From Bdellovibrio sp. BCCA (lineage in GTDB: Bacteria > Bdellovibrionota > Bdellovibrionia > Bdellovibrionales > Bdellovibrionaceae): a stretch of DNA of 64,000 bases. Under the pieces are notes generated by a model. That model saw only the letters and a list, made by a program, of their open reading frames with translations, was not told the DNA's origin and ran no database searches. The translations under genes were made by a program, and so were the position numbers. Within the stretch, counting starts at the first letter, position 1. Each line of letters begins with the position of its first letter. Positions 12,926 through 49,074 of the stretch are shown here, in pieces. The stretch covers positions 62,001 to 126,000 of the forward strand of contig NZ_JBBNAC010000002.1 of the NCBI RefSeq assembly GCF_037996825.1. The letters run 5' to 3'.

Positions 12926-14353
12926 CTACCCCACCTTTCTTTGAGGAATAGCTTCGAATGACGCTTCAAATGGGACACTTGCTGCGCTTAAAATCGACTG
13001 TCCAATTCTTTGGAAAACTGACACAAATGGAGGAACAATGATGGCCTGTCCAAGAACTTCATGTCCAAATGTAAGTCCAAGACCCACAACCAATGATTCA
13101 TCAACACCTTTTGCTCGCGCGTGTTCAAGGACTGTTGGAATTCTCAGAAGATCTGGTTTATCCGGATGTTTAATAAATGTGCCTGTGCTTTGTCTTTTGG
13201 TAAGAGATTTCGTCAAAGTGTTAAACTTCGTTGAATCAGCATCAACGATATTCATTTTGAAACCCTTACCAGCAGCTTTGTCAGTAATTTCTTTCGCCTT
13301 CAGGTAGGACATTTCACTCCACATTGAGCTTTCATTCGGTACACTCTCCATGATGTCGCCGACACACATTTGTTGCACATTCTTAGGTGTGATTCCTTCA
13401 AAGGAGAAAGACATCCCCTGAGTCACTGCAACCATACAAAGTCTTTTTCGATGTTCGATCATGCCCCAATCAGCAGCATTAAGAATTTCCTCGTGAACTT
13501 CGTATCCAAGATCTTTCAATTGGGTCCGGATGATACTCATTGAAGCGGAGCTTTGATAAGGAATGACATTCTCAAGAACGATTACCGCAGGGTTTGTCTT
13601 GGCAATCACTGCGAGCCAAGAAACAACCAAATGCCCAACGTCTGGATGCGCCTCAGGGTGAACAATCTTATTCTTCGCGCGACCAGCAACACTAGCGCCC
13701 GAGCAAGGAATGCCAGCAACTAGCACCTCTACTTCTGGAATTCTGGACATAATGTCTGAATCAAATACGAATTCCTGCAAAGGGGACGTGATAAGGATCG
13801 TTTCAGGCCCATAGGAATAGTTTCTCTCAGCTGCATGTTCCATACAGTCAGAGCGGATTTCATTCACAAAGGCTGTTTTTGTGCGAATCCCGGCCTCTTT
13901 TAAGCCTTGATGGGTGGCTAGATCAAGTACGCCAATACCGGATGCGACAGATCCGATCATCAAACTTTCGCCACCGCGAATACGACTAATCATGCGCGAC
14001 ATGCGCTTCATAGCGCGTATTTGGGAAGCGACTGGCAAAATAGTGATAACACTATCTTCAATTATAACGCGAACTGATTGGAGGCCTTTGAAGACCTTCA
14101 AAATCTCTTTTGAGTTCAGATCAATGACGGGAATTTCCTGATTTGACTTTGAAGTTTTTTTGGATACGACGCGAGCGCCGTCCTTTGAAATTACCAATCG
14201 CAAAAGGCATTTTTCCTCATCGACAGTCACATCGTATTTAACTTGCGGAGTAAAGCCAGCTCGGCGAGGCTGAGCCCCTTCAAGCCAAATTCTTGGGGAA
14301 CCACGGTGACTTCCAATCTTTTTGATTTCATACCCTTTAAGAGAATTCATCAT
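12926..14353 (-). CDS. C5-cytosine DNA methyltransferase with SymE/AbrB-like N-terminal domain
   Basis: A 475-residue enzyme transferring methyl from S-adenosylmethionine to C5 of cytosine. Motif I is VASGIGVLDLA, the catalytic Cys is in GIPCSGAS (about 207), motif VI is LENV (about 250) and motif VIII is EHRKRL. The first roughly 110 residues are extra. PRIWLEGAQPRRAGF and the following beta strands resemble SymE/AbrB-type swapped hairpins, which could bind DNA or RNA. A TTG alternative lies one codon upstream. The promoter contains the 9-bp operator repeats, and no cognate endonuclease is adjacent. Confidence 0.85.
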   Translation of the reverse strand: MMNSLKGYEIKKIGSHRGSPRIWLEGAQPRRAGFTPQVKYDVTVDEEKCLLRLVISKDGARVVSKKTSKSNQEIPVIDLNSKEILKVFKGLQSVRVIIEDSVITILPVASQIRAMKRMSRMISRIRGGESLMIGSVASGIGVLDLATHQGLKEAGIRTKTAFVNEIRSDCMEHAAERNYSYGPETILITSPLQEFVFDSDIMSRIPEVEVLVAGIPCSGASVAGRAKNKIVHPEAHPDVGHLVVSWLAVIAKTNPAVIVLENVIPYQSSASMSIIRTQLKDLGYEVHEEILNAADWGMIEHRKRLCMVAVTQGMSFSFEGITPKNVQQMCVGDIMESVPNESSMWSEMSYLKAKEITDKAAGKGFKMNIVDADSTKFNTLTKSLTKRQSTGTFIKHPDKPDLLRIPTVLEHARAKGVDESLVVGLGLTFGHEVLGQAIIVPPFVSVFQRIGQSILSAASVPFEASFEAIPQRKVG

Positions 14354-14425
14354 CAAACTCCAGCCTTTTGATTAAATAGCCTTCGTTAGTATATCATTTA
14401 TTATTGATTAACCGCGAGGCCAAAT

Positions 14426-22289: not shown

Positions 22290-23225
22290 ATGTCCGGAAA
22301 AATGTCACTTTCTTCAAAAATCGAAGACTTTGTATCTGGCTTAAATGAATCCTTTCGCCTTTCTGATATTTACAGGAAATTCCCTAATGAAAAGAAGACT
22401 ACCATTCGCGGAAGAATTTATCGTGAACTGATCGGAAGAGGAGTTATCACTCGTATTTCTGATGGTTTATATGAATTCGCTGGAAACGATGGTCAAAGTG
22501 GTCTCGTAGTGCAAGGAAATGCCAGAGATCTATCGTCAATTCAGGATTCATCTATTTCTTTAATCATTGCCGACCACCCATATAAGATTCAAACTGGTCG
22601 AAACCGTGACTTCACCAAAGGCTATCAGGCATCACTATTCGAATACCAGCAAGACGACTTTAATGAAAAGTCTCGCGTGCTTTGCGAAGGGTGTTTCCTT
22701 GTTGAATTTCTTCCAGAAATGAAAGATGGGAATGCAGACTACATATCAAATATTATCCAAATGGCAAAAGGTGCAGGACTTCGTCTCTATGCAAGAGTAC
22801 CTTGGTATAAAGCTGAAGTAAGAAATGGGAAGTTGATTGATCACTCGGCAAATGTTGGAAGAAAAGGTGTTATGGAAGATATCTACATCTTTTCAAAAGG
22901 TGCTCCTCGTAAATTGAGAATGCGAAATCAGGGCGGAGTGATTCGCTCTGAATCTGGCGCGAAGTCTATTCTTCCAGCTGTATTTATGGAAAAACCACTT
23001 CTAAGAAGTGAGAAATCTCATCAATCAGCAAAACCACCTCAACTAATTAGAAAACTAATTGATCTTTTCACATTAGAAATGGAAGTGGTTCTTGATCAAT
23101 TTGCGGGATCATTTGTCGCATTCTGGGAAGCAATCGGAATGAAACGCAAAGCAATTGCAATTGAACTCTGTCAAGAATACATCGACACCAACTTCCTTGA
23201 TTTACAAACGGAGGAAGCCGCGTGA
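22290..23225 (+). CDS. DNA amino-methyltransferase (adenine-N6 or cytosine-N4)
   Basis: A 311-residue enzyme in the beta-class order: catalytic motif first (IIADHPY, residues 95-98, where most have DPPY or NPPY), then the target region, then the AdoMet-binding motif LDQFAGSFVAFWEA near 273. The N-terminal 60 residues form a winged-helix-like domain (RLSDIYRKFPNEKKTTIRGR). The His in DHPY is unusual; relatives should be checked for activity. GAGG precedes the ATG and operator array O3 controls it. No restriction endonuclease is adjacent. It overlaps the next gene by 4 nt. Confidence 0.8.
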   Translation: MSGKMSLSSKIEDFVSGLNESFRLSDIYRKFPNEKKTTIRGRIYRELIGRGVITRISDGLYEFAGNDGQSGLVVQGNARDLSSIQDSSISLIIADHPYKIQTGRNRDFTKGYQASLFEYQQDDFNEKSRVLCEGCFLVEFLPEMKDGNADYISNIIQMAKGAGLRLYARVPWYKAEVRNGKLIDHSANVGRKGVMEDIYIFSKGAPRKLRMRNQGGVIRSESGAKSILPAVFMEKPLLRSEKSHQSAKPPQLIRKLIDLFTLEMEVVLDQFAGSFVAFWEAIGMKRKAIAIELCQEYIDTNFLDLQTEEAA

Positions 23226-25207: not shown

Positions 25208-27220
25208 ATGGTCATCAAAAGAATACTGGTTGCGATCTTTTTCATGATTGCACACACAAATCCCGCATCTGCGACGGGCGTGGTCATTTCGCCTACTGGT
25301 AGCGGAGTCTTCGCAGCCGACAACGGCACTTCGTCAAGTATTGCAACATCAAATGGCAAACCAGTCGTGAATACCACTGCCGCGATGAACACTGGCACGT
25401 TGGATGTTCTAACTGAAGCCAATACGCCAACAAGTATTGTGAATGTGTACCTGGATAACAAGAACACTCTTGGCAGTGCAGTAAACGTAAATCTCGATCT
25501 TTCAGCAAAATTTAATAAAGCTGCTTCATACGCTCCAGTATCTTCGCAAGACGCTTCTAATGCATTGGTGGTAACTTCTTTTCTCGGCAATATCACAGCT
25601 GACGTTTCTGGTTATGAAGGCCTTGCAGGAAAAAACTCTTCAATGATTTGTGCTGACCGCATCATGGCGGGCGATTACGGAGTTGATGTAAAAACGGCGT
25701 TCGAGGCTCGGCGTCAAGCTGACAGTGCTTTGTCATTGAGTGTGTGTGATGCCACGGATGTAGCGTCCGTTACAAATGCAAAAGCACCAGTTTGTTCGAT
25801 TGGCACCTACGACAATTCTAAAAATGGTCAAAGCTCTCCAATTTTCACGGTGAAAAAAGCTGTGAAGAAAAGAAAGTGTGAACGCGACGTTGCGGTTGGG
25901 TATCAATGTTACCTTCAGACTTATAACTACGAGTGTGGATTTTGGGGAGGTTTGATGACTGGAATTCAAACTACTCCAAAAGCCTTCTCTTACACCATGA
26001 CTGGTCTCATTACTAACAATGCAGGAACAGTAAGTTTTTCTTGGAGATCGAATATTTATCCATCCTCTCCATCTTCTCATCCTAGATTTTCTTCTGCGAC
26101 GAGGCCGAACTTCTATGAAGTTTGTAGTGGCTCATCCGTAGCGACACCAATGGGTACTGGTGCTTACGGTGAGCCCATTTCTGTTTGTTCTGGAAGTGCA
26201 GCAAAGATTCACTCTGCGACGCTTGCTAATCAAGGATCTCTATGGCCAGTTTACGACTATAACACTGGCTCTGATATCAGAGGAAGCTATCCGGCGAAAA
26301 CTGGAAATGTCAGATTCTTCGAATCTTTACAAGGTCCCTTTTCTGGATATTTTGGTTCATTCAAGTCTTTTAAATCGAAACAATCACGACCAACTCACTA
26401 TGAAGTGGCACTCCAATGTCAAAGCAACGGGCCATGGTCAGAAGGTTATACTATTTTTGGATCAGGAAACGTGGAATATAGCGGTGGATGGATAAGTGGA
26501 ACTGGTGCCCCCTTTCGAGTTGGCGATGCTGAATTACAAATCATCGACACAGGTAGCATCTCAAAAACTTGTTCAGCATGGAAAGCAGAGCGTCCAGCCT
26601 ATGACAACTATGAAATCGCTCAATCCGTTTTGAAAACTCAAAAAGAAGTTACTTGGGTTGATGATGCTGTAACCACAACTTGCCCAGCTGGCACGAACGA
26701 TATGGGTCTATCAGACGATTGGTCAAACAATCCTGCGGATTATCAGAACCCTGCAAACCAAGTAAGCATTGACTGTGCTTACGGAACAAACTGCGGCGCT
26801 GGCGTTCAAACTTCTTTCACATCAACTGAGCAACGTGGTGAGATTCTTCGTCCAGATGCCGGAGAAACAGGCTCAATGGGTGGTCGTGTCGATGCTTTAG
26901 TTTACTCATTCACTGGCGTTCAAACTGGATCTGTTACTAACGGGTCAAACGGAACAAACGGCGCTATCGATATCAATGCAGTATCTTCACCGAAGTTCTG
27001 CGCAGACATCAAGAACACGACTGCTGAACAAATTAAAGTCCCAATTCTGAACATTGAAAAAGTCATGTATTTCCCTTGGGATTTGAGGCCTGTTTCATAC
27101 TCGGAATCAAAGACTTTCCCAACTCGCAATCAAACTGATTACTTCAAGATTTATACGGGAATAACAGAACCGTTCCGAGACTATCTGAAACGAGTAAACT
27201 GCCCAACTTGTCCAAGATAG
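25208..27220 (+). CDS. large secreted Cys-containing protein
   Basis: A 670-residue exported protein. The signal peptide (MVIKRILVAIFFMIAH... ASA) has a likely cleavage site before TGVV. The mature N-terminal ~120 residues are Ser/Thr/Asn/Ala-rich and nearly Cys-free, like surface or fibre proteins. The rest carries about 20 Cys, presumably disulphides formed outside the cytoplasm. The C-terminus ends in CPTCPR. No domain is recognised. GGGAGGCTGTT precedes the ATG. It is the first of three large surface-protein genes. Confidence 0.75.
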   Translation: MVIKRILVAIFFMIAHTNPASATGVVISPTGSGVFAADNGTSSSIATSNGKPVVNTTAAMNTGTLDVLTEANTPTSIVNVYLDNKNTLGSAVNVNLDLSAKFNKAASYAPVSSQDASNALVVTSFLGNITADVSGYEGLAGKNSSMICADRIMAGDYGVDVKTAFEARRQADSALSLSVCDATDVASVTNAKAPVCSIGTYDNSKNGQSSPIFTVKKAVKKRKCERDVAVGYQCYLQTYNYECGFWGGLMTGIQTTPKAFSYTMTGLITNNAGTVSFSWRSNIYPSSPSSHPRFSSATRPNFYEVCSGSSVATPMGTGAYGEPISVCSGSAAKIHSATLANQGSLWPVYDYNTGSDIRGSYPAKTGNVRFFESLQGPFSGYFGSFKSFKSKQSRPTHYEVALQCQSNGPWSEGYTIFGSGNVEYSGGWISGTGAPFRVGDAELQIIDTGSISKTCSAWKAERPAYDNYEIAQSVLKTQKEVTWVDDAVTTTCPAGTNDMGLSDDWSNNPADYQNPANQVSIDCAYGTNCGAGVQTSFTSTEQRGEILRPDAGETGSMGGRVDALVYSFTGVQTGSVTNGSNGTNGAIDINAVSSPKFCADIKNTTAEQIKVPILNIEKVMYFPWDLRPVSYSESKTFPTRNQTDYFKIYTGITEPFRDYLKRVNCPTCPR

Positions 27221-27228
27221 ATCAGCAA

Positions 27229-27249
27229 AAGGGGCCATCAGAGCCCCTT
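27229..27249 (+). terminator. hairpin after the secreted protein gene
   Basis: AAGGGGC/GCCCCTT stem of 7 bp with a 7-nt loop, starting 8 nt after the stop at 27220. There is no U-tract, so termination is probably partial and the next lipoprotein gene may be read through. Confidence 0.45.
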
Positions 27250-27288
27250 AGATTTGAAAGTTTAAAGAACTGTTTTTATGGAGGTAAA

Positions 27289-30276
27289 ATGAAACTCTTT
27301 ATTGTTCTACTAACAGCATTATTGTTCGCCGGATGCTCCGGTGGAGGCGGTGGAGGTAGCTCTACACCAACCGTACCTACATATTCTGCTGAATATCAAT
27401 TCCCCGCAAACGATATGCAGCCCGGAGATGGCGAAAGAGTTGTTGAGGCAATCGGTGTTCTTAAGTGCGTCGATACTTCAAGCGGTCAAGAAGTTGATCT
27501 ATCACATTGTCCAATGCCAACCGATAACAAGCCAACTTCGACTCAGCAGTCACCTTCTGGCTTCCGAGATGTTGTCGTTGATGGCGCTACATCAGCTCGC
27601 GAATATGTCGAAGCTGGAAGTGCAGTTTGGATCCTTAAGCCGGAGTTCATCGTTTGTGACTTTTCAAATGGGTACACGGCTGTTGGAGTGACGTGTAAAA
27701 TTCCAGGATATGAATCGGTATATTCAGCGTATTCTTCTCCTACAAAAATACTCGCCTGTGATGGGACAGAACTTTTAACAAGAACTTATCAAACTTGTCG
27801 GAACAATATTACCTTGGAACAAGTTGACGATACTCTTTGTGCAGGACAAACAGATCCAAATCCTACTCAGGAGTACAAATCTCCTGCTGGATTGAGAATC
27901 TTCAATGTTGCTGAAGGAACTCAGACAGTCCAATGTATTGCAGGTCAAGAAAAAGCGGCTGGTACTGTTGTTGATGTTACCTGCACTCTTCCAGATCAGC
28001 ATAAGTCTGGCCTTTCATGTTTGAATGACACATACTCTTCTGTCTTCAGAGACCCGGTAAACAGTAAAACGGCAGTTTGTTCAGGAACAGAAACGCTGAA
28101 TCGAGTTTATGACTATTGTAGAAGAGATCATGACAATGTGGTTGTCGACGGTTCTAAGTGTCCTACGAAAACAACCACTGACAACGTCACTTACAAATCC
28201 CCATATGGAACTCGTCCTCTGAATATCACAAATTCAGATGGTACGGCGTATGAAGAATGCCAAGAGGGTCAAACTACTTTTGCGGCTGTACCAAGTTCAG
28301 TTGTTTGTTTGCCAGGAAACCACGTTAATGGTCTTTCATGCGATTCTGATATTATCGCTTGTACAGGATTAGAAAGTGATGCAATTAAAGCTCTCACTGG
28401 CGATAGAACGTGGAATTCCGGAACTTCGACATACGAGACATGCGTTGCAAGAACTTGCCAAGATGGGCACTACCTAACTGGATCGACATGTTCTGAAGTT
28501 GGTGTTGGATATTATTCTGACACTCTAATTACAAGAACTCAGCGCCTTCAATGTCCAACCAACTCTTCGACATCGTCGACGACATCATCCTTGATCGGAG
28601 ATTGTCTTGCAGTATCCGGCTATTATAAAGTCACTGATACGCAATTTGATCCTGTTGGACTTGGACACTATTCTGGCAATCTAGACAATAATCGAAATGC
28701 ATGTTTAAGTGGCACATATTCTGATATTACTGACGCCTCATCTTGCAAATCGTGCGATAATAAGCCAGCGAACTCAGATACTGTAACCTATGATCCCATG
28801 GAGTATGGAGTTTCCACTAACTCTTGTTCTTATGCTTCGATAACTTGTACCTCGGGATATAAAGATCACAACTATTCATGTCATCCAGTATCATATGTTG
28901 GTCAATATAGCGACTTCTTCAATCCAGACATAACAACTATTTCTTGTTCCGGCACTGAAGATAACCCTCGTACTGTAGATTCTTGCGAAATGCACTACTC
29001 TACGCAAAGTGAGCCTGTAGCAAATTCGTATTGTGAGAGTTTGCCCGAGCGAGGTACAACAACAAGTTCTTCACCTGAGGGTGATGTAACTGAACCAATA
29101 CCTAACGGTTCCGCTACATATCACTGCCTTGCTGGATCCACGACAAAATCAGAAGTTTCAAGAACGTGTGATTCAGGGTACGTTCTTAATGGCCAAAATT
29201 GTGAAATGAAGGTCGAACAACTCACTTTGACTATGCAACATACTTGCGCAAGGCTTAGTGGAGGCAAGGTTAAATGTTGGGGCGACAATACCAACTCACA
29301 AATCGGCGATGGGACAACAGCTCACAGCTTTACTTCGAAACTCACTTCGCCTGATTTTAATTTCAGTCAGTTTTCGTCGGGCTCTGGGTATTCGTGTGGC
29401 CTTTCCGAAGGAGCAGTTTTCTGTATCGGAGCAAATAACTTTGGTAAGCTTGGCGATTCATCAACGACCAACAGAACGACTTATGTACCTAATACCGAAC
29501 AAACTGAAACAATGAAGATCGTGGCTGGTTGGTCACACACATGCGCGATTAATTCAGGTAAAGTAAAGTGCTGGGGAAGAAATAGTAACGGTCAACTTGG
29601 AGACGGCACCACGGTAGATAAAACTCACCCAATGGCATCTACTTATGTGACTGGTATCACTAACGCTACAATGATTTCACTTGGTCAAAACCATACCTGC
29701 GCTCTTGATGGTACGACAATTAAATGTTGGGGATGGAACACCTACGGTCAGCTGGGAAATGGAACCACAACAACCAGCTCGACGCCAGTTGTCGCAATGA
29801 CAAACGCGAAATTCGTAGCATTGGGAGCCAGCCATTCATGCGGTATTGATAACTCAAATGTGGCAAAATGTTGGGGATTGAATACTATGGGGCAGCTCGG
29901 CGATACTACAACAACCAATCGTAGCTCTCCGACGACGGTCAATACTGCTTTGGTGCCTCCTGTAAATTCCATTCACGCAGGCTTCCAACATACATGTGCA
30001 GTTCAGTCCAACAATCAAGTAAAGTGCTGGGGAGCAAATGAGTCTGGACAGTTGGGTAATAACACAACTACTGGGCTTCACACGCCTACACCACAATTGG
30101 TTCAAGGTGGAGCATTGTATACCCAAGTCGTGGCAGGAGGATATCACTCTTGCGGCCTTCGAACGGACGAAAAAACCGTATCCTGTTGGGGCCTCAATGA
30201 TAAAGGTCAGCTGGGTGATGGATCATCAACTCAAAGACTGACCCCGGCGACAACGGTTCAAGGTCTCATCCCTTAA
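27289..30276 (+). CDS. large lipoprotein with Cys-rich modules and RCC1-like repeats
   Basis: A 995-residue lipoprotein: signal sequence, lipobox FAGC (Cys16), then a Gly6 linker. Residues ~40-340 hold at least two tandem Cys modules with a shared core 'C-G-T-E-x-L-x-R-x-Y-x-x-C', loosely like thrombospondin type 1. Residues ~340-650 contain more Cys-rich loops. Residues ~655-995 contain seven RCC1-like blades, each with HTCA and KCWG followed by GQLGDGT. The paired Cys in each blade suggest stapled propellers. ATG at 27289 follows GGAGG. Likely surface-exposed adhesion or interaction protein, by inference. Confidence 0.8.
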   Translation: MKLFIVLLTALLFAGCSGGGGGGSSTPTVPTYSAEYQFPANDMQPGDGERVVEAIGVLKCVDTSSGQEVDLSHCPMPTDNKPTSTQQSPSGFRDVVVDGATSAREYVEAGSAVWILKPEFIVCDFSNGYTAVGVTCKIPGYESVYSAYSSPTKILACDGTELLTRTYQTCRNNITLEQVDDTLCAGQTDPNPTQEYKSPAGLRIFNVAEGTQTVQCIAGQEKAAGTVVDVTCTLPDQHKSGLSCLNDTYSSVFRDPVNSKTAVCSGTETLNRVYDYCRRDHDNVVVDGSKCPTKTTTDNVTYKSPYGTRPLNITNSDGTAYEECQEGQTTFAAVPSSVVCLPGNHVNGLSCDSDIIACTGLESDAIKALTGDRTWNSGTSTYETCVARTCQDGHYLTGSTCSEVGVGYYSDTLITRTQRLQCPTNSSTSSTTSSLIGDCLAVSGYYKVTDTQFDPVGLGHYSGNLDNNRNACLSGTYSDITDASSCKSCDNKPANSDTVTYDPMEYGVSTNSCSYASITCTSGYKDHNYSCHPVSYVGQYSDFFNPDITTISCSGTEDNPRTVDSCEMHYSTQSEPVANSYCESLPERGTTTSSSPEGDVTEPIPNGSATYHCLAGSTTKSEVSRTCDSGYVLNGQNCEMKVEQLTLTMQHTCARLSGGKVKCWGDNTNSQIGDGTTAHSFTSKLTSPDFNFSQFSSGSGYSCGLSEGAVFCIGANNFGKLGDSSTTNRTTYVPNTEQTETMKIVAGWSHTCAINSGKVKCWGRNSNGQLGDGTTVDKTHPMASTYVTGITNATMISLGQNHTCALDGTTIKCWGWNTYGQLGNGTTTTSSTPVVAMTNAKFVALGASHSCGIDNSNVAKCWGLNTMGQLGDTTTTNRSSPTTVNTALVPPVNSIHAGFQHTCAVQSNNQVKCWGANESGQLGNNTTTGLHTPTPQLVQGGALYTQVVAGGYHSCGLRTDEKTVSCWGLNDKGQLGDGSSTQRLTPATTVQGLIP

Positions 30277-41174: not shown

Positions 41175-42113
41175 TTAACCAGCAAGTGACATGTTGGTTT
41201 TGTAAACATCAACTCTTGGAATTCTTTGAACAACGGACAAATCAGCACCGTTGTAAATTCGATCTTTCAAGAAAGCCTTCTCTGCTTCGAGCTCGGCCTC
41301 CGGAAGATTTTTGAACCAATACTTGTACTCCGCATTCCACAGGTATCCCTTCACCTTTAGAAGGTTCTTCATATCAAACGGGGAGTTTTTTGCGATAACA
41401 CGGACTTTAGGCATTCGTGCACGCTCAAGGAGCTCGTGGAAGTTTGTCTCGAACTCTGAATGATCACCTTTACGAGATTTTGCTAAAATATGAACCAGAA
41501 CATCCACATCCGCCATTGCGCGGTGAGCGTTCGAGAATACGCCGTGGTAAACGGACAATAACTCAAGCTTTGCACTTGGCATACCCTGAGCTTTCCATTT
41601 GATACAATCAATAGAGCAGGCCCAAACTTTCTCTCTCGACATCGTAGACTTCACATCGACAAATGATCGGTCAAATGGCGCATTGTGAGCAATTACTACT
41701 CCACAAGGAGACAAAAGCGTCTCAAACGCCCCCCAGTCGATAGACTTACCTTTAACTTGGTCAATGGTAATCCCGGTCAACTCCGTAATCTCTTCAGAGA
41801 TATGACCACTCTTTGGTTCCTGGAACGCTTGATATGAACCAGTGATTGCAAGAAATTCACCAGTCTTTTTGTTATAAAGAACTCTTTTTGCTGCCAATTC
41901 AATAATCTCGCAATAGAAAGCATCAGTTCCGGTCGTTTCACAGTCGAGAATAAGAGCTTCAGCAACAGATTCTGCATTTGAATCCAACCACTCTTTATTG
42001 TAGTAGGCTGGGGGTTCAAATAATGGATCTTGCAGACGACGAAGGATTACAGATTCCCCGTCCGGAGACAGATTCTTCCAAGGAATTGCTTTGGCCGATC
42101 CGAGCTTAATCAT
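41175..42113 (-). CDS. DnaQ-like DEDDh 3'-5' exonuclease
   Basis: A 312-residue exonuclease. Exo I is LILDCETTG (Asp57, Glu59), Exo II is AHNAPFDRSFVD, and Exo III is AHRAMADVDVL with the catalytic His. The last ~75 residues form an extra small domain (GYLWNAEYKYWFKNLP), also seen attached to such exonucleases. It could proofread or degrade single-stranded DNA. GGCGGAGGATAA precedes the ATG, and operator array O5 is upstream. Confidence 0.85.
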   Translation of the reverse strand: MIKLGSAKAIPWKNLSPDGESVILRRLQDPLFEPPAYYNKEWLDSNAESVAEALILDCETTGTDAFYCEIIELAAKRVLYNKKTGEFLAITGSYQAFQEPKSGHISEEITELTGITIDQVKGKSIDWGAFETLLSPCGVVIAHNAPFDRSFVDVKSTMSREKVWACSIDCIKWKAQGMPSAKLELLSVYHGVFSNAHRAMADVDVLVHILAKSRKGDHSEFETNFHELLERARMPKVRVIAKNSPFDMKNLLKVKGYLWNAEYKYWFKNLPEAELEAEKAFLKDRIYNGADLSVVQRIPRVDVYKTNMSLAG

Positions 42114-43347: not shown

Positions 43348-43447
43348 TGTGACTCCTAACTAAGTTCGTTTCCGGGTACTTAAAAAATGCACCGAAGAAA
43401 ATTTCTCAGTGCAATCAGGTTGATGCAGGATTCCTTAGTGAATCCAT

Positions 43448-43717
43448 CTATCTTTTAATCTTTCCTTCGGAAAGAAACTCGCCAATCATTTTCCGAACTA
43501 ACCAAGAAACTTCACTATTTCCATCAAAACTTCTTCTGAGGAATTCATCCTTTTTCAATCCGGATTTTTGTAATGATTCTTCAGTTATTCGCTCAATTAA
43601 TTCATCAAATTTAAAGCTCTGAACTGCAATCTTGACATTACTAATAAGTTCATCAACTAATTCATCATTCTTTTCGCCATTGGTATCGAAATCTTGGTTT
43701 CTTTCGTCATTTTTCAT
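43448..43717 (-). CDS. small acidic hypothetical protein
   Basis: An 89-residue hydrophilic, acidic helical protein (KNDERNQDFDTNGEKNDELVDEL). The ATG at 43717 with AAAGGGGAAATT in front is preferred to the longer frame, which overlaps the upstream gene. It is the last gene of a - strand operon that starts near 44878. No family is recognised. Confidence 0.5.
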   Translation of the reverse strand: MKNDERNQDFDTNGEKNDELVDELISNVKIAVQSFKFDELIERITEESLQKSGLKKDEFLRRSFDGNSEVSWLVRKMIGEFLSEGKIKR

Positions 43718-43727
43718 AATTTCCCCT

Positions 43728-43982
43728 TTATTCGAAATGAAGATCCCATAACTCATTGATTTTCTCGATCTGAACAGTGCTGGGTGTCCACTTTGGTTGT
43801 TCTTTAACCTTTTTAGAAAGTTGATTGATAAAATCTCTCTCCCAAGGCGACAGAGCGAGAGGTGAGTCGTGATCAGCACCTCTCTTTAAATCATTGAGCC
43901 GAGCGAGAAGTATTTCGCGCTTCTCGCTTTTTCTGCCCGTGACATTGCAATTCGTGGCTTTGTTCATTATCACGCCATTCAT
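43728..43982 (-). CDS. small hypothetical protein
   Basis: An 84-residue basic N-terminus (TGRKSEKREILLARLNDLKRG) followed by a helical region rich in Trp and Lys. The ATG overlaps the upstream TAA (TAATG), with GAGGAGTTCAGG in front, so translation is coupled. No family is recognised. Confidence 0.5.
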   Translation of the reverse strand: MNGVIMNKATNCNVTGRKSEKREILLARLNDLKRGADHDSPLALSPWERDFINQLSKKVKEQPKWTPSTVQIEKINELWDLHFE

Positions 43983-44521
43983 TACCTGAACTCCTCTGTG
44001 TAGTTTTCAATGATTCTATTGACAACCTTCGTGATGTCCTCGACACGATAGCAATCAAAAGGAAGTGAGTGGTTTCTTCCACCAGTGTGATCCTTGAGAT
44101 GCTTAATGGCGCGAGCATAAGACCATGTTCCTCCCAAAACGATGGAGAAACCCTGCCCCTTTGAATTCATCGCCATTAAGGTAGTTTCACCGATTGATGC
44201 AATCCCTGCCTGATTAGAAGATACTTCAATCTTTTCGAAACCAAGATTCATCGCTAGCTTCTTTAGCTCCTTTCGAGCCAGTTTGTGATAAGCCTCTTTC
44301 AGTTCAGCTCTTGATGGATTATATTTTTGAATTAGCCTTGCAGCTCTGTCTAGATTGTCTGGTTTATCAATCTTGTCGAGCTTATCGATAACATCACGAA
44401 GTTCTTCGATACAAACGCGATGGTTTTCAAGTAGGAAAGACACATCATTCGAATTCTGAAGCTGTTCGTCGTTCTTAAAATATGCCGATAAAATAACAGT
44501 CATCTTCTTCAAGTTTTCCAT
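43982..44521 (-). CDS. hypothetical protein
   Basis: A 179-residue protein. Residues ~1-100 are helical, with possible coiled coil (CIEELRDVIDKLDKIDK). Residues ~100-179 are a mixed domain with a small Gly-rich turn (FSIVLGGTWSYARAIKHLKDHTGGRNHSLPFD). GGAGGGAAGTAAG precedes the ATG. No family is recognised. Confidence 0.55.
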   Translation of the reverse strand: MENLKKMTVILSAYFKNDEQLQNSNDVSFLLENHRVCIEELRDVIDKLDKIDKPDNLDRAARLIQKYNPSRAELKEAYHKLARKELKKLAMNLGFEKIEVSSNQAGIASIGETTLMAMNSKGQGFSIVLGGTWSYARAIKHLKDHTGGRNHSLPFDCYRVEDITKVVNRIIENYTEEFR

Positions 44522-44653: not shown

Positions 44654-44878
44654 CTACTCCGTCAGCTCCGGCTCTCTAATTAGAAGATGTGTTTTTCCAC
44701 TCGTCTTATCAAAGCCGTGATCCACATATCGAGCGCCAGCTTTAGTAAGATTACTCATTGCCTCGTGGAATTCGGCAGGCTCCCATCCATTGAAAAAGAG
44801 AATCAGAGTGTCGCCTTTCTTCCTGTCCCAATGTGTTGTCTGCTGTTCTACTAACTCAAACCATTTTGCTCTCTGCAT
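44654..44878 (-). CDS. small hypothetical protein
   Basis: A 74-residue protein with a compact alpha/beta pattern (RAKWFELVEQQ, DTLILFFNGWEPAEFHEAMSNL, HLLIREPEL). The ATG at 44878 is preferred to the longer frame because promoter P11 and GGCGGGAACAGT lie in front of it. It is encoded just downstream of the SNF2 helicase-nuclease. No family is recognised. Confidence 0.6.
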   Translation of the reverse strand: MQRAKWFELVEQQTTHWDRKKGDTLILFFNGWEPAEFHEAMSNLTKAGARYVDHGFDKTSGKTHLLIREPELTE

Positions 44879-44897
44879 ACTGTTCCCGCCGAACAGG

Positions 44898-44923
44898 TAA
44901 ATAGGGACCATGTCAAAAATGAT
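44898..44923 (-). promoter_or_regulatory. CCCATTTA-class promoter P11
   Basis: On the - strand ATCATTTT at 44923-44916 and CCTATTTA at 44905-44898 (preceded by TC), offset 18 nt, upstream of the gene at 44878. It overlaps the 3' end of the helicase gene. Confidence 0.7.
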
Positions 44924-47073
44924 TAAACCTTTAGAGCTCCGCGATTTGTGTCGATGATAACCACTGGAATTCCATCAATATTGAATGAATTAATTCCCGA
45001 CCATGGAGCAAACAAAATAACGCCAGAAATGCCGCCTTTATCCTTAAAGGCCTCGATATATCTTCGAACCTGGTTATAGACGCCTTTCTTGTTGTCGGAA
45101 GTTTTCTTAAGCTCAACAACGACGCGATCATCACTGTTAGGATCTTCAACCAAGAAATCGAGCCTATTGCGCTTATCGAGGATATATTCGCGATGCACCG
45201 TAAGGTGAGAAAGGTGCTCTTTAAACACATTGTGAGTTGCAACCTGCATAGAGGTTTCGGTGGTTGTTGGTACTGACATGTTGTCTAGTAACTCCGCAAC
45301 GGCACGAGTGACACCTTTAGTTACCACTTCCTCAGGTAGTTCAAATCCATTTTCTTTTAAGAATGCTCTGGCGGCCTCTTTCATTCTTTCCGTTGTTTGC
45401 GACTGCGAATTACCTTCAAATACCTTCGCTTTATTGACGTTGCCTTCAATAACGCCTAAATGTTGGCTTTTCTTAATTCCAAGAACATTCATCATGAATG
45501 GATCAAGGCCATAGTTTGTTACGAGGATATAAGCATTTCCATATTTCAACTGGCCGATACGGTCGATTCGCCCAACAATCTGCTCAAGCATATTTGGAGA
45601 CCAATCAAGCTCAGCAATTACCATAGTTGAGCAGACATGCTGTAAACCATCAACGCCCGCTCCGCCGCGAAGACTCAAGATAAAGACAGAAGCATTTGTT
45701 TCAAGGAATTCCTTTTTAGAACGCTCTTTTTCTTTCGGATCTTCACTTCCGGTGCACATGACATATCGAATGCCATTTTGCTTAAGATACTTTTCCCAAA
45801 TGTCGTAGACTTCACGGTGCCATCCGACCAGGACCACCTTTTCTCCCTGATCCACCAAATTCTTTACGAACTCAATAGCTGGGCGGGCCTTAGCTACTCC
45901 AGTAAGTTTCCGAAGTGTTAGGTTAAAAGTGGATGAGCGGTGACCTTCATCACTAATACCACCAGTCAGTAGCGATATGGCTAGCTTGGCAGCAATAGCT
46001 TTTTCATCATTCACCTTCCCGAGGTCTGGCGGGATGCTGATGACTTGAGTCGAAATTTTATTGCTAGACTTTCCTTCCCTGCGAATCATAAGGCCACTTG
46101 AAATCAAGAATTCATTGAGGGCTTCAGGCTTCTTAATCTCTTTTCCACCTTGGCACCACTCACTGACGAAATTACTTCTCGTTCCAAGTGCAGTAGGGTA
46201 AATCGCATCAATTACATCCCACACTTCGGAACCATAGTTCATGATGGGAGTCGCTGACATTCCAACGCAGTAGTTAACTGTTTCTGAAATCGCACGGCAC
46301 GCCTGACTTTTAGATGAGCTTGCGTTTCTTAGCTCATGAACTTCGTCTATCAGCAAATACTTAAAGCGAGGATCGTTAATATCAACGAGAGCATCTTGCC
46401 AATATGGGAGGCAGTTGTAAGAGATTATGAATACATCTGTGGTATCCCAAGGTAAATCGTAGTTTTTGTAACCACGGATGATATGTGTTCGCAGATCGGG
46501 AAATGCGAGTTTAACATTCTCTTCCCATTGGGGAGTGATGTTCGAAGGACACACAATCAGACATCGTAGGGTGTCTTCATATGAAAGTACTGAAAGACCT
46601 GAAAAGGTTTTACCTTTACCCACGGGATCGGCAAGAAGCGTGCGCTTTAGAGCACCAATTAGGTTATAGAACACCTTTTGATCTTCGAAGAGATCAATCT
46701 TCATTTCGCGGCCACGCTCTGGAATTTTGTACTGATTGTTTTTTGCAGAATTCCTGACCGTCTCTTGAACCTCGTCAAACTCGCGAGCCTTGCTAAGGAT
46801 TTCATCCAGAAGATCTTCATCAATACAGAAGTCATACCGAGACAAGAACATTTCTAGATCGCGGCACTGACTTCTTGTTAGGCTGATTTCAACAATTTCG
46901 TGAGTGAAGATACCTTTAATTTGACTGACATCCGCCTTAAAGAAGGGGCGAATCTTCTGCATAACATGAGGACGCGCGTCGATAGCGATTGAATTTTTAT
47001 CGCTTCGAACCACCTGGCCATCAAAATCTTTTGCCTCGTCAAGAGACATTGTTTGCAGAAGCTTCTCGAGCAT
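44923..47073 (-). CDS. SNF2-family DNA translocase with C-terminal PD-(D/E)XK nuclease domain
   Basis: A 716-residue fusion. An N-terminal ~120-residue domain is unassigned. The SF2 core follows: motif I ADPVGKGKT (about 148-156), motif II DEVH (243-246), SATP, then the second lobe with GWHREVYDIW, LSLRGGAGVDGLQ and EQIVGRIDRIGQ (arginine finger). The last ~90 residues hold RLDFLV and, after about 10 residues, VVVELKK, the D...E-x-K nuclease pattern. Such fusions couple ATP-driven DNA tracking to cleavage, as in defence or repair systems. The neighbouring DUF4942 methyltransferase is a possible partner. Confidence 0.8.
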   Translation of the reverse strand: MLEKLLQTMSLDEAKDFDGQVVRSDKNSIAIDARPHVMQKIRPFFKADVSQIKGIFTHEIVEISLTRSQCRDLEMFLSRYDFCIDEDLLDEILSKAREFDEVQETVRNSAKNNQYKIPERGREMKIDLFEDQKVFYNLIGALKRTLLADPVGKGKTFSGLSVLSYEDTLRCLIVCPSNITPQWEENVKLAFPDLRTHIIRGYKNYDLPWDTTDVFIISYNCLPYWQDALVDINDPRFKYLLIDEVHELRNASSSKSQACRAISETVNYCVGMSATPIMNYGSEVWDVIDAIYPTALGTRSNFVSEWCQGGKEIKKPEALNEFLISSGLMIRREGKSSNKISTQVISIPPDLGKVNDEKAIAAKLAISLLTGGISDEGHRSSTFNLTLRKLTGVAKARPAIEFVKNLVDQGEKVVLVGWHREVYDIWEKYLKQNGIRYVMCTGSEDPKEKERSKKEFLETNASVFILSLRGGAGVDGLQHVCSTMVIAELDWSPNMLEQIVGRIDRIGQLKYGNAYILVTNYGLDPFMMNVLGIKKSQHLGVIEGNVNKAKVFEGNSQSQTTERMKEAARAFLKENGFELPEEVVTKGVTRAVAELLDNMSVPTTTETSMQVATHNVFKEHLSHLTVHREYILDKRNRLDFLVEDPNSDDRVVVELKKTSDNKKGVYNQVRRYIEAFKDKGGISGVILFAPWSGINSFNIDGIPVVIIDTNRGALKV

Positions 47074-47134
47074 ACAGAGGCTTAATGCAGATCTTCTGCT
47101 TTCTAGATACTATTTGTCCTAATAAATGAAATTT

Positions 47135-47497
47135 CTATGGATTTTCAACTTTTGAAAACGAGGAAGAATCAAGAAGACCGTCGATAGTTGATTTTTCCAC
47201 TTCTCCGTTGATCAATATGAAACGATAAGTATTCCCGTGGGGCTGAATGGCCACTAAATCATGCTTAAAAAGAAGGTGAGACTGCCACCCGTTTGCAGAA
47301 GACCGCCTAGATGCGATTTCTAATGCACGGTCAACAATTTCATGCAAACTCAAGTTAAGATCGTCCGTTATTGTGAAAAAGTCGACATCCTTTGATAGAA
47401 ATAGTTCATGATGACCGAACTTTCGATTCTTCTTTTTTGGGAATAGGTAAATTATCGAACCTATTCCGCTAAAAATATTCTTCCAAAAGTGCTTCAT
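47135..47497 (-). CDS. hypothetical protein
   Basis: A 120-residue protein with a basic, mildly hydrophobic N-terminus (WKNIFSGIGSIIYLFPKKKNRK) and a helical core (ITDDLNLSLHEIVDRALEIASRR), then beta strands. It lies between the DUF4942 methyltransferase and the SNF2-nuclease in the same direction, so it probably belongs to their operon. No family is recognised. Confidence 0.5.
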   Translation of the reverse strand: MKHFWKNIFSGIGSIIYLFPKKKNRKFGHHELFLSKDVDFFTITDDLNLSLHEIVDRALEIASRRSSANGWQSHLLFKHDLVAIQPHGNTYRFILINGEVEKSTIDGLLDSSSFSKVENP

Positions 47498-47505
47498 CCA
47501 TACCC

Positions 47506-48996
47506 TTATTTATTAATAGTCAGCACTGTGACTCTTACGTTTGTATCGTCGAATTGTCCCTCAATAGGTTCACTCCATTCGATTGCAGCGCCACTCACAT
47601 CGACCTTCCCAACTAACGAACAAGGAAGAATGGCGACCAATGTCCCACCATCATCTAGCAGTTCAATGGCCTTATTAAGATGCTGAAGAGCTCTTCCGTC
47701 AGAGAATGGTGGGTTCATTGCGATTTTTTGAAACTTGCGCTCAAAACTCTGAGAAAGAAAATCTCCTTCAACTACGCTGAAACCTTTTTCTTTTAGAATG
47801 GAGCAATTCACCGGGTCAATTTCCACACAGGTAGTTCTCTTTTTAGGAAGGCGATCAGACAATCCACCCTGCCCGGCAGATGGCTCCAGAACTCGGTCCC
47901 AACTTTCAATGTAACCAAGTTTTGAAATTACCATGCTAGCGAGAGCGGATTTCGTTGGGTAGAACTGATTTGATTTCTTTTCTGGATAACAACCCATTCT
48001 GATAATTTCATTTAGTCCTGCAATGGATTCTTCAGGAATATGGAATGTCCCACTTTCTTCAATAGCGCCAAGGTATAAGAGGATCTCTTTAACGACTTGA
48101 TTCTTGGTATAAATTGAACGATTCCGATATTCGGAAATATCCATCAATATTCTAAGAACTTCATCGCTCAAAAAATTCTTCTGAAGGGGTTTGTCGTATG
48201 CTTTCTTTGCCTTAGAAGGTCGACCTTTAGATGAAGCAATAACCGCAGGATACAAGTTCGAAAGAACATCATTAAGGTATATCGCAATCTCTGGATGAAC
48301 TTGGATATGAATGGTCCCAACCTTGAATATCTTCAAAGTAAGAGCTCCCCCATCTATCTTAACTTCTTGACCGAATTCCGTAATTCGCAAAGTAGATCGC
48401 GTTCTTGGATCATAATCATCAGTATCCCGACCCATGTACTTAGCAACAATAAGGCGAAGATCATCAAGAGTTTCGCAAGTGCGATAATTTGGAGAGCCAA
48501 AGCTATCTAAAGCATTTGAAATGATCATCTTCTTTGAAAACGCCATTGGATTATTGGTAACGTGATGACCCGATAAAGATCGAAAAATTCCATCGACCTT
48601 TTTAGCTAAAAGTTGATCTTTGTTTTTAATGAATTGATCAAGTGTGGCATAGAGATTCTTCGCGCTGAATTCTGGTGTTTTGAATTCGGAAATCATGTTA
48701 TGCCACTCGGATCTTTCTTGTGCCGACATATAGTCAAGCATATCGGTCTTCTTGATAGCTCGGTCCCAATATTCGGAGTTTAAGGCTTTTACGGCCAGAT
48801 CAGGGTCCATGTGGCGAGTGTAGGAAGAATGTAGCTTGTTACCCTTGATAAAATATTGAAAAGGCCCTTCAAAATTCTTAAGCAGTTTTCCTAGTTCCGA
48901 GATTTTCGCAAGCTCAATTTGATATTCGTTAAACAGATCGGATACATCAGACGCGATTTGATTTTCACTTTTTTGAGCAACGATTTCCGGCAGCAT
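47506..48996 (-). CDS. DUF4942-type DNA methyltransferase
   Basis: A 496-residue protein. The N-terminal ~270 residues match the DUF4942 pattern (KVDGIFRSLSGHHVTNNPMAFSK, DDLRLIVAKYMGRDTD). The C-terminal ~150 residues are a class I methyltransferase with YPTKSALA, RVLEPSAGQGGLSD (AdoMet motif), CVEIDP and the catalytic NPPF (MNPPFSDGRA), fitting adenine-N6 specificity. I place the start at ATG 48996 behind AAGGAGATCAGT; the longer frame runs into operator array O6. It is 8 nt upstream of the next gene and heads the SNF2-nuclease operon. Confidence 0.8.
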   Translation of the reverse strand: MLPEIVAQKSENQIASDVSDLFNEYQIELAKISELGKLLKNFEGPFQYFIKGNKLHSSYTRHMDPDLAVKALNSEYWDRAIKKTDMLDYMSAQERSEWHNMISEFKTPEFSAKNLYATLDQFIKNKDQLLAKKVDGIFRSLSGHHVTNNPMAFSKKMIISNALDSFGSPNYRTCETLDDLRLIVAKYMGRDTDDYDPRTRSTLRITEFGQEVKIDGGALTLKIFKVGTIHIQVHPEIAIYLNDVLSNLYPAVIASSKGRPSKAKKAYDKPLQKNFLSDEVLRILMDISEYRNRSIYTKNQVVKEILLYLGAIEESGTFHIPEESIAGLNEIIRMGCYPEKKSNQFYPTKSALASMVISKLGYIESWDRVLEPSAGQGGLSDRLPKKRTTCVEIDPVNCSILKEKGFSVVEGDFLSQSFERKFQKIAMNPPFSDGRALQHLNKAIELLDDGGTLVAILPCSLVGKVDVSGAAIEWSEPIEGQFDDTNVRVTVLTINK

Positions 48997-49047
48997 TACT
49001 GATCTCCTTATACGGAATTTCAATATGATACATCCTATCATACAACT

Positions 49048-49074
49048 ACCATGTTTACCATGTTTACCGCTATA
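49048..49074. promoter_or_regulatory. 9-bp operator array O6 with TATAAT
   Basis: Two perfect ACCATGTTT units and a third partial one (ACCGCTATA) in tandem, with TATAAT (49071-49076) at the + end, 20 nt before the ATG at 49096. It lies between this gene and the divergent methyltransferase operon, whose side has TATGAT. It is the clearest copy of the array. Confidence 0.75.

What the first reader, a model, noticed from the sequence alone, without database searches (positions are those of the whole stretch)
44923..48996. SNF2 translocase fused to a PD-(D/E)XK nuclease beside a DUF4942 methyltransferase
The 716-residue protein has complete SF2 motifs and a C-terminal RLDFLV...VVVELKK nuclease pattern. 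In the same direction, with one small gene between, lies a DUF4942/NPPF methyltransferase, all downstream of operator array O6. Methylation plus a DNA-tracking nuclease is the logic of several restriction-like defence systems. I do not know this exact combination as a described system.
Basis: partly seen in the sequence, partly recalled or inferred. Interest (0 to 1): 0.72.

Follow-up and report, generated by a model that had tools for sequence, protein, structure and literature searches.

The report
Plasmid SNF2 motor fused to nuclease
On a 209-kb plasmid of a Bdellovibrio-like bacterium, a DNA-tracking motor protein is joined to a DNA-cutting domain that phages and other large plasmids nearly always encode as a separate gene beside the motor, so the two form one machine, most likely for repairing or recombining the element's own DNA rather than a restriction system with the neighbouring methylase.

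Summary
The protein is real. Window 44923-47073(-) encodes a complete SNF2 translocase with a C-terminal PD-(D/E)XK nuclease. AlphaFold of the C-terminal 125 residues, with 74 aligned sequences, gives pLDDT 94, and Foldseek finds NucS/EndoMS, Bax1 and BamHI. The D, ExK and QxxxY residues are invariant across all 74.

The proposed restriction system with the DUF4942 methylase is not supported. No DUF4942 gene was found near any of 168 other SNF2 loci. Of 82 DUF4942 loci, none has the nuclease and one has a weaker SNF2 hit. DUF4942 is a common orphan methylase of phages and plasmids.

The real partnership is motor plus nuclease. In 145 non-redundant homologues the nuclease is an upstream gene in 128 and a C-terminal fusion in 10. 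Fusion arose at least twice, in an order opposite to gene order. Searching with the nuclease alone finds the SNF2 gene in 45 of 46 loci.

The window lies on a 209-kb plasmid-like replicon. An operator (TTTACCATG repeats; 11 exact cores on the replicon, none on the chromosome) overlaps the promoter predicted for this operon. It also precedes recA, ssb, an operon containing ligase, and another methylase.

Best explanation: a DNA-processing (recombination/repair) machine of mobile elements, here in one chain. Substrate and cutting activity are inferred.

The parts
44923..47073 (-). SNF2 translocase fused to a C-terminal PD-(D/E)XK nuclease, 716 aa (start at codon 1 or at Met9, nearer to where homologues begin)
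45502..46680 (-). SNF2/SF2 motor core, about residues 132-524: GKGKT, DEVH, SATP, RGGAGVDGLQ, QIVGRIDRIGQ
44926..45300 (-). PD-(D/E)XK nuclease domain, residues 592-716
   Evidence: AF2 pLDDT 94.4; Foldseek; PHROG 5928 8.3e-10
45058..45159 (-). Active-site codons D639 (45157-45159), E654 (45112-45114), K656 (45106-45108), Q668 (45070-45072) and Y672 (45058-45060)
   Evidence: invariant in 74 aligned nuclease domains
47135..47497 (-). 120-aa protein of unknown family between methylase and SNF2 gene
   Evidence: no Pfam/PHROG/PADLOC hit; no relative at the other 168 SNF2 loci
47506..48996 (-). DUF4942 orphan DNA methyltransferase (EPSAGQGGL motif I, NPPF motif IV), 496 aa
   Evidence: PF13708 2.1e-31; PHROG 6263 1.6e-117; translation
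49047..49068 (.). Operator: two and a half copies of the 9-bp unit TTTACCATG
49037..49066 (-). Sigma-70-like promoter (TAAACA-18-TATGAT) overlapped by the operator; consensus match only
44654..44911 (-). 85-aa ORF 11 bp downstream of the SNF2 gene, same strand
43448..44521 (-). 179-, 84- and 143-aa ORFs, rest of the presumed operon
43388..43413 (-). Terminator-like hairpin with T-run closing the presumed operon
   Evidence: 12 found in the region against 7.3 expected in shuffles, so weak alone

Best explanation
This is the single-chain version of a two-part DNA machine of phages and large plasmids: a small PD-(D/E)XK nuclease plus an SNF2 double-strand translocase. Most likely the motor tracks along the element's DNA, stops at a branch, stalled fork or bound protein, and presents one strand to the nuclease, which incises or resects it. 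This would serve recombination-dependent replication, repair or establishment of the plasmid. Here the machine shares an operator with RecA, SSB, a ligase operon, a DnaQ-type exonuclease and a second DNA methylase. Shown: the fold (as a confident model), the conserved active site, the near-obligate motor-nuclease association, at least two separate fusions, and the shared operator sequence. Inferred: nuclease and translocase activity, the substrate, the repair role, and that the operator regulates these genes.
For: Nuclease fold at pLDDT 94.4. PDB structural relatives include the repair nucleases NucS/EndoMS and Bax1, the partner of an SF2 helicase (PMC7293015). D, ExK and QxxxY are invariant in 74 domains. 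Of 145 non-redundant SNF2 homologues 113 have the nuclease gene directly upstream, 15 further upstream, 10 fused, 7 none (2 of these at a contig end); no fused locus has a second nuclease. Reciprocal: 45 of 46 nuclease loci have the SNF2 gene. The nuclease is the only widely conserved neighbour (88 loci by clustering; next family 17). Fusion falls in two groups on the tree, forced by well-supported branches. Phage neighbours include sliding clamp, RusA, SSB and a DnaC-like loader. The operator lies 27-56 bp before recA, ssb, the first gene of the ligase operon and this operon.
Against: No biochemical data on this family were found. SNF2-nuclease fusions also occur in defence: ZorD (PADLOC) and Type-1 BREX-related helicases (PMC12839542). 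Operator sites also precede lipoprotein and unknown genes, so the regulon is not purely DNA repair. Phages can carry the pair for host takeover or competition.
Confidence: 0.62

Rival explanations
1. Restriction-like defence or inter-element weapon: the SNF2-nuclease destroys unmodified incoming DNA and the DUF4942 methylase marks plasmid DNA as self.
For: Methylase, ORF120 and SNF2-nuclease are co-directional with 8- and 61-bp gaps behind one promoter-like site. Helicase-nuclease plus N6-methylase is the logic of Type-1 BREX-related systems (PMC12839542).
Against: No DUF4942 found within about 10 kb of 168 other SNF2 loci. 82 DUF4942 loci have no such nuclease and one weaker SNF2 hit. DUF4942 proteins occur on at least 5000 plasmids and many phages. 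The family is frequent in phages, including a 308-kb phage genome. The best PADLOC ZorD/DpdE/DrmD stretches lie in the motor region.
Confidence: 0.15
2. Methylase-helicase dyad for transfer, like DarB of phage P1: the SNF2 motor assists methylation of newly entered plasmid DNA against host restriction; the nuclease trims ends or branches.
For: SWI2/SNF2-adenine-methylase couples are described in phages and conjugative elements (PMC5512222). The replicon has a TrbI/VirB10-like gene. The operator also precedes an N6/N4 methylase.
Against: Motor-methylase linkage is not conserved in this family; the C5-methylase-like neighbour family is near only 14 of 169 loci.
Confidence: 0.13
3. Host-takeover nuclease: the machine degrades host chromosomal DNA or evicts resident replicons.
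For: Present in phages and in large plasmids; the DdmD helicase-nuclease (a plasmid-destroying defence enzyme) is among the structural neighbours of the domain.
Against: Carried by resident plasmids and chromosomal (prophage-like) loci, which must tolerate it; shares an operator with recA and ssb.
Confidence: 0.07

Closest known systems
Phage/plasmid SNF2 helicase (PHROG 62) with upstream PHROG 5928 nuclease gene
   Same: Same motor family and same nuclease family, on the same strand
   Different: There two genes, nuclease first; here one chain with the nuclease at the C-terminus. PHROG 5928 is listed as unknown function, and I found no description of the pair
Vibrio nigripulchritudo plasmid SNF2-related protein WP_200769095
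   Same: Match over residues 17-714 including the fused nuclease
   Different: About 30% identical; on the tree a separate fusion; no DUF4942 nearby
VRR-NUC plus SNF2 gene pair of phages (e.g. orf24-orf25 of phi1207.3, PMC4260502)
   Same: Small PD-(D/E)XK-superfamily nuclease gene directly before an SNF2 gene
   Different: Nuclease here gives no VRR-NUC hit; the SNF2 protein there is 458 aa
Archaeal XPB-Bax1 helicase-nuclease
   Same: SF2 motor plus nuclease as a repair machine; Bax1 binds the C-terminal half of XPB, in line with the C-terminal fusion here (PMC7293015)
   Different: XPB is not an SNF2 protein; Bax1 has extra domains
ZorD of Zorya I and Type-1 BREX-related helicase-nucleases
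   Same: SNF2 motor with a nuclease domain in one chain
   Different: Other domains and obligate partners that are absent here

Membership tests
PHROG 62 / PHROG 5928 motor-nuclease module | SNF2 core of the PHROG 62 family | tested here: met
   1.9e-75; SF2 motifs aligned
PHROG 62 / PHROG 5928 motor-nuclease module | PHROG 5928-type nuclease adjacent or fused | tested here: met
   8.3e-10 for the isolated domain; own HMM 2.8e-23, the window sequence being one of its rows
PHROG 62 / PHROG 5928 motor-nuclease module | Nuclease and translocase activity | not testable with these tools
   needs biochemistry
PD-(D/E)XK nuclease superfamily | alpha-beta-beta-beta-alpha-beta core with D and ExK | tested here: met
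VRR-NUC nucleases | VRR-NUC sequence profile | tested here: not met
   no VRR-NUC hit for this protein or for the stand-alone relatives
Zorya type I (ZorD) | ZorA/ZorB/ZorC partners | tested here: not met
   PADLOC scan of this protein and six neighbours: none
Zorya type I (ZorD) | ZorD match over motor and nuclease | tested here: not met
   best stretch 98-313 only
Type-1 BREX-related system | DUF499 ATPase and DUF1156 N6-methylase with helicase-nuclease | tested here: not met
   Pfam of neighbours: DUF4942, no DUF499/DUF1156; definition from PMC12839542
DISARM | DrmA, DrmB, DrmC with DrmD and methylase | tested here: not met
   DrmD/DrmA models match the motor only; no DrmA/B/C hit among the neighbours scanned
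Restriction-modification system with DUF4942 | Conserved linkage of methylase and nuclease | tested here: not met
   0 of 168 SNF2 loci with DUF4942 and 0 of 82 DUF4942 loci with the nuclease
Restriction-modification system with DUF4942 | Methylation blocks cleavage | not testable with these tools
   needs methylome and cleavage assay

The most novel reading that the evidence does not exclude
The operator-linked genes (RecA, SSB, ligase operon, two DNA methylases, SNF2-nuclease) form an establishment programme switched on when the plasmid enters a new cell, in which the methylases mark plasmid DNA and the SNF2-nuclease removes competing or host DNA, so that a widespread phage/plasmid helicase-nuclease pair of unknown function is an inter-replicon weapon.
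Probability: 0.1. Interest if true: 0.78.

Novelty: new variant of a known kind. Interest (0 to 1): 0.5.

Why it matters
It links two phage protein families, an SNF2 'DNA helicase' and a nuclease of 'unknown function', into one machine by three kinds of evidence: near-universal adjacency in both directions, repeated fusion, and mutual exclusion of fused and separate forms. That gives a defined two-component target found in phages of many hosts and on large plasmids of Acinetobacter, Pseudomonas and Vibrio. The plasmid operator gives a second, independent handle on function, because recA and ssb carry it too.

Tried and rejected
Close relatives in related genomes: only distant SNF2 proteins, and DUF4942 absent from all 59 other genomes. 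Single-protein scan of viral contigs: nothing. AF2 of the whole protein without alignment: pLDDT 38, discarded. tblastn of the C-terminal domain alone against plasmids: nothing, too divergent; profiles were needed. PDB sequence search with the nuclease profile: one weak hit, E 0.04, not used. Alignment A3 was too diverse for a collection scan, so a closer subset A5 was used. Idea that ORF120 is the displaced upstream nuclease: rejected, no nuclease match. Idea that the replicon is a phage: not supported; a TrbI/VirB10-like gene and a HerA-type ATPase were found and no phage structural gene among the proteins scanned, but not all proteins were scanned.

Full report
What was checked. The finding names a 716-aa SNF2 protein with a C-terminal nuclease pattern, a DUF4942 methylase in the same direction and one small gene between. 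All are there. The SNF2 core is secure (Pfam 3.9e-20, PHROG 62 1.9e-75). Pfam alone left the C-terminus weak (NucS_C 2.5e-4, PDDEXK_3 0.004).

The C-terminal domain. An alignment of 74 sequences (A3) leaves E606, E629, D639, E654, K656, Q668 and Y672 invariant, that is D, ExK and QxxxY; QxxxY is, from my own knowledge, a motif of RecB/Cas4-type nucleases. AlphaFold2 with this alignment gives pLDDT 94.4 and pTM 0.88, with the order helix, three strands, helix, strand. Foldseek against the PDB returns R.BspD6I small subunit (2e-4), then NucS, EndoMS, Bax1, BamHI and DdmD. TM-scores are about 0.5 and only the first hit is below E = 0.001, so the superfamily is clear but the closest family is not.

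The replicon. The window is bases 62001-126000 of contig C2, 209,039 bp, in a two-contig, complete genome; C1 is a 3.80-Mb chromosome. C2 has 42% G+C and carries PolIII alpha parts, DnaB-like and UvrD helicases, ribonucleotide reductase, NAD ligase, RecA and SSB, plus a TrbI/VirB10-like and a HerA-like protein. It is most simply a giant, possibly transferable plasmid. Close relatives of the SNF2-nuclease and of DUF4942 are absent from 59 related genomes. 'Bdellovibrio-like' is my reading of the genome's size and content; the tools gave no name.

Who are the relatives. By tblastn the motor matches 182 phage records (Gordonia, Arthrobacter, Pseudomonas, Caulobacter and others) and 424 plasmids (many 250-340 kb Acinetobacter plasmids). 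In every unfused phage or plasmid example opened, a gene of about 120 aa lies directly before the motor. It is annotated variously as 'Cas4 family exonuclease', 'endonuclease', 'primosomal protein' or hypothetical. All seven match PHROG 5928 (2.8e-25 to 2.1e-58), the same family as the fused domain of the window protein (8.3e-10) and of the Vibrio nigripulchritudo plasmid protein (1.7e-27).

Systematic test. Loci were collected with motor patterns only and scored with a nuclease profile. Of 169 loci, 127 have the nuclease less than 100 bp upstream, 20 within 2.5 kb, one further upstream, 12 fused at the C-terminus and 9 none (3 at a contig end). Non-redundant (145): 113, 14, 1, 10 and 7. No fused locus has a second nuclease. 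In reverse, 45 of 46 viral loci found by the nuclease alone have the motor, mostly starting within tens of bases; in the phage collection all ten nuclease records belong to phages already in the motor list. Within 6 kb the nuclease is by far the most frequent neighbour (88 loci by clustering against 17 for the next). On a 90-protein tree the fused proteins need two changes, also when only well-supported branches count: one group of eight with the window protein, and the Vibrio plasmid/L087 pair. Gene order is nuclease then motor, but every fusion found is motor then nuclease, so loss of a stop codon cannot explain it.

The methylase. None of the other window genes tested, DUF4942 included, recurs around the other 168 motor loci, apart from one metallophosphatase at one locus (L042 was fetched for its methylase and is excluded). 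Among 82 DUF4942 loci there is no nuclease and a single weaker SNF2 hit. DUF4942 proteins occur without this pair in phages and on at least 5000 plasmids, one beside a conjugation cluster. The obvious role is protection of the element's own DNA. The pairing with the SNF2 gene is local to this plasmid.

Regulation. TACCATGTTTACCATGTTTACC at 49047-49068 overlaps the -35 of a promoter-like site at 49066-49037, about 50 bp before the methylase ATG; promoter-like matches are not enriched over shuffles in this region, so the promoter is a lead only. The core TGGTAAACATGG occurs 11 times on C2 and never on the chromosome (reversed control 0). Sites lie 56 bp before recA, 47 bp before ssb, 27 bp before the first gene of the operon containing NAD ligase, 38 bp before an N6/N4 methylase, and 25-44 bp before several unknown or lipoprotein genes. 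A 2-mismatch site lies 21 bp before the DnaQ-type exonuclease at 41175-42113. The motor-nuclease operon therefore appears to share control with plasmid recombination and replication genes.

Mechanism. SNF2 enzymes translocate on duplex DNA without separating it (PMC5512222). Structural parallels for the nuclease include NucS/EndoMS, which cut branched or mismatched DNA (own knowledge), and Bax1, which binds the C-terminal half of the SF2 helicase XPB and is placed to incise forked DNA (PMC7293015). Jumbo-phage authors also proposed that phage SNF2 helicases could replace UvsW in recombination (PMC7824862). I therefore favour a tracking-and-cutting machine for recombination-dependent replication or repair. 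Restriction, transfer protection or takeover remain possible but have less support.

Novelty. I found no description of the PHROG 62/PHROG 5928 pair as a system, but the library holds open-access papers only. Motor-nuclease pairs of other families are known (VRR-NUC plus SNF2 in phi1207.3, PMC4260502; XPB-Bax1; ZorD; Type-1 BREX-related). This is a new variant of a known kind.

Noticed in passing
C2 operator sites; in window 22250, 42134, 49047, 50550, 56807, 59038: Replicon-restricted operator of 9-bp direct repeats TTTACCATG (11 exact cores on C2, 0 on the 3.8-Mb chromosome) before recA, ssb, a ligase operon, methylases and lipoprotein genes; the binding protein is unknown.
   Followed up: partly
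G000:C2 (loci L044, L004, L005): The 209-kb replicon carries its own PolIII alpha pieces, DnaB-like helicase, UvrD helicase, RecA, SSB, NAD ligase and ribonucleotide reductase, an unusually complete replication set for a plasmid.
   Followed up: partly
L044:9311-11758 and L045:1428-2852: PolIII alpha appears split: PHP domain plus start of the polymerase domain in one ORF and the finger domain in another about 10 kb away. Possibly a split gene or intein; not examined.
   Followed up: no
window 27208-30276 and L005:16345-18966: Two large proteins with RCC1-type repeats.
   Followed up: no
window 12926-14356 and 22290-23225: A C5-cytosine methylase and an N6/N4 methylase; with DUF4942 at least three DNA methylases on the replicon.
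   Followed up: no
L044:1378-2628: OrfB/TnpB-like IS605-family protein on the replicon.
   Followed up: no
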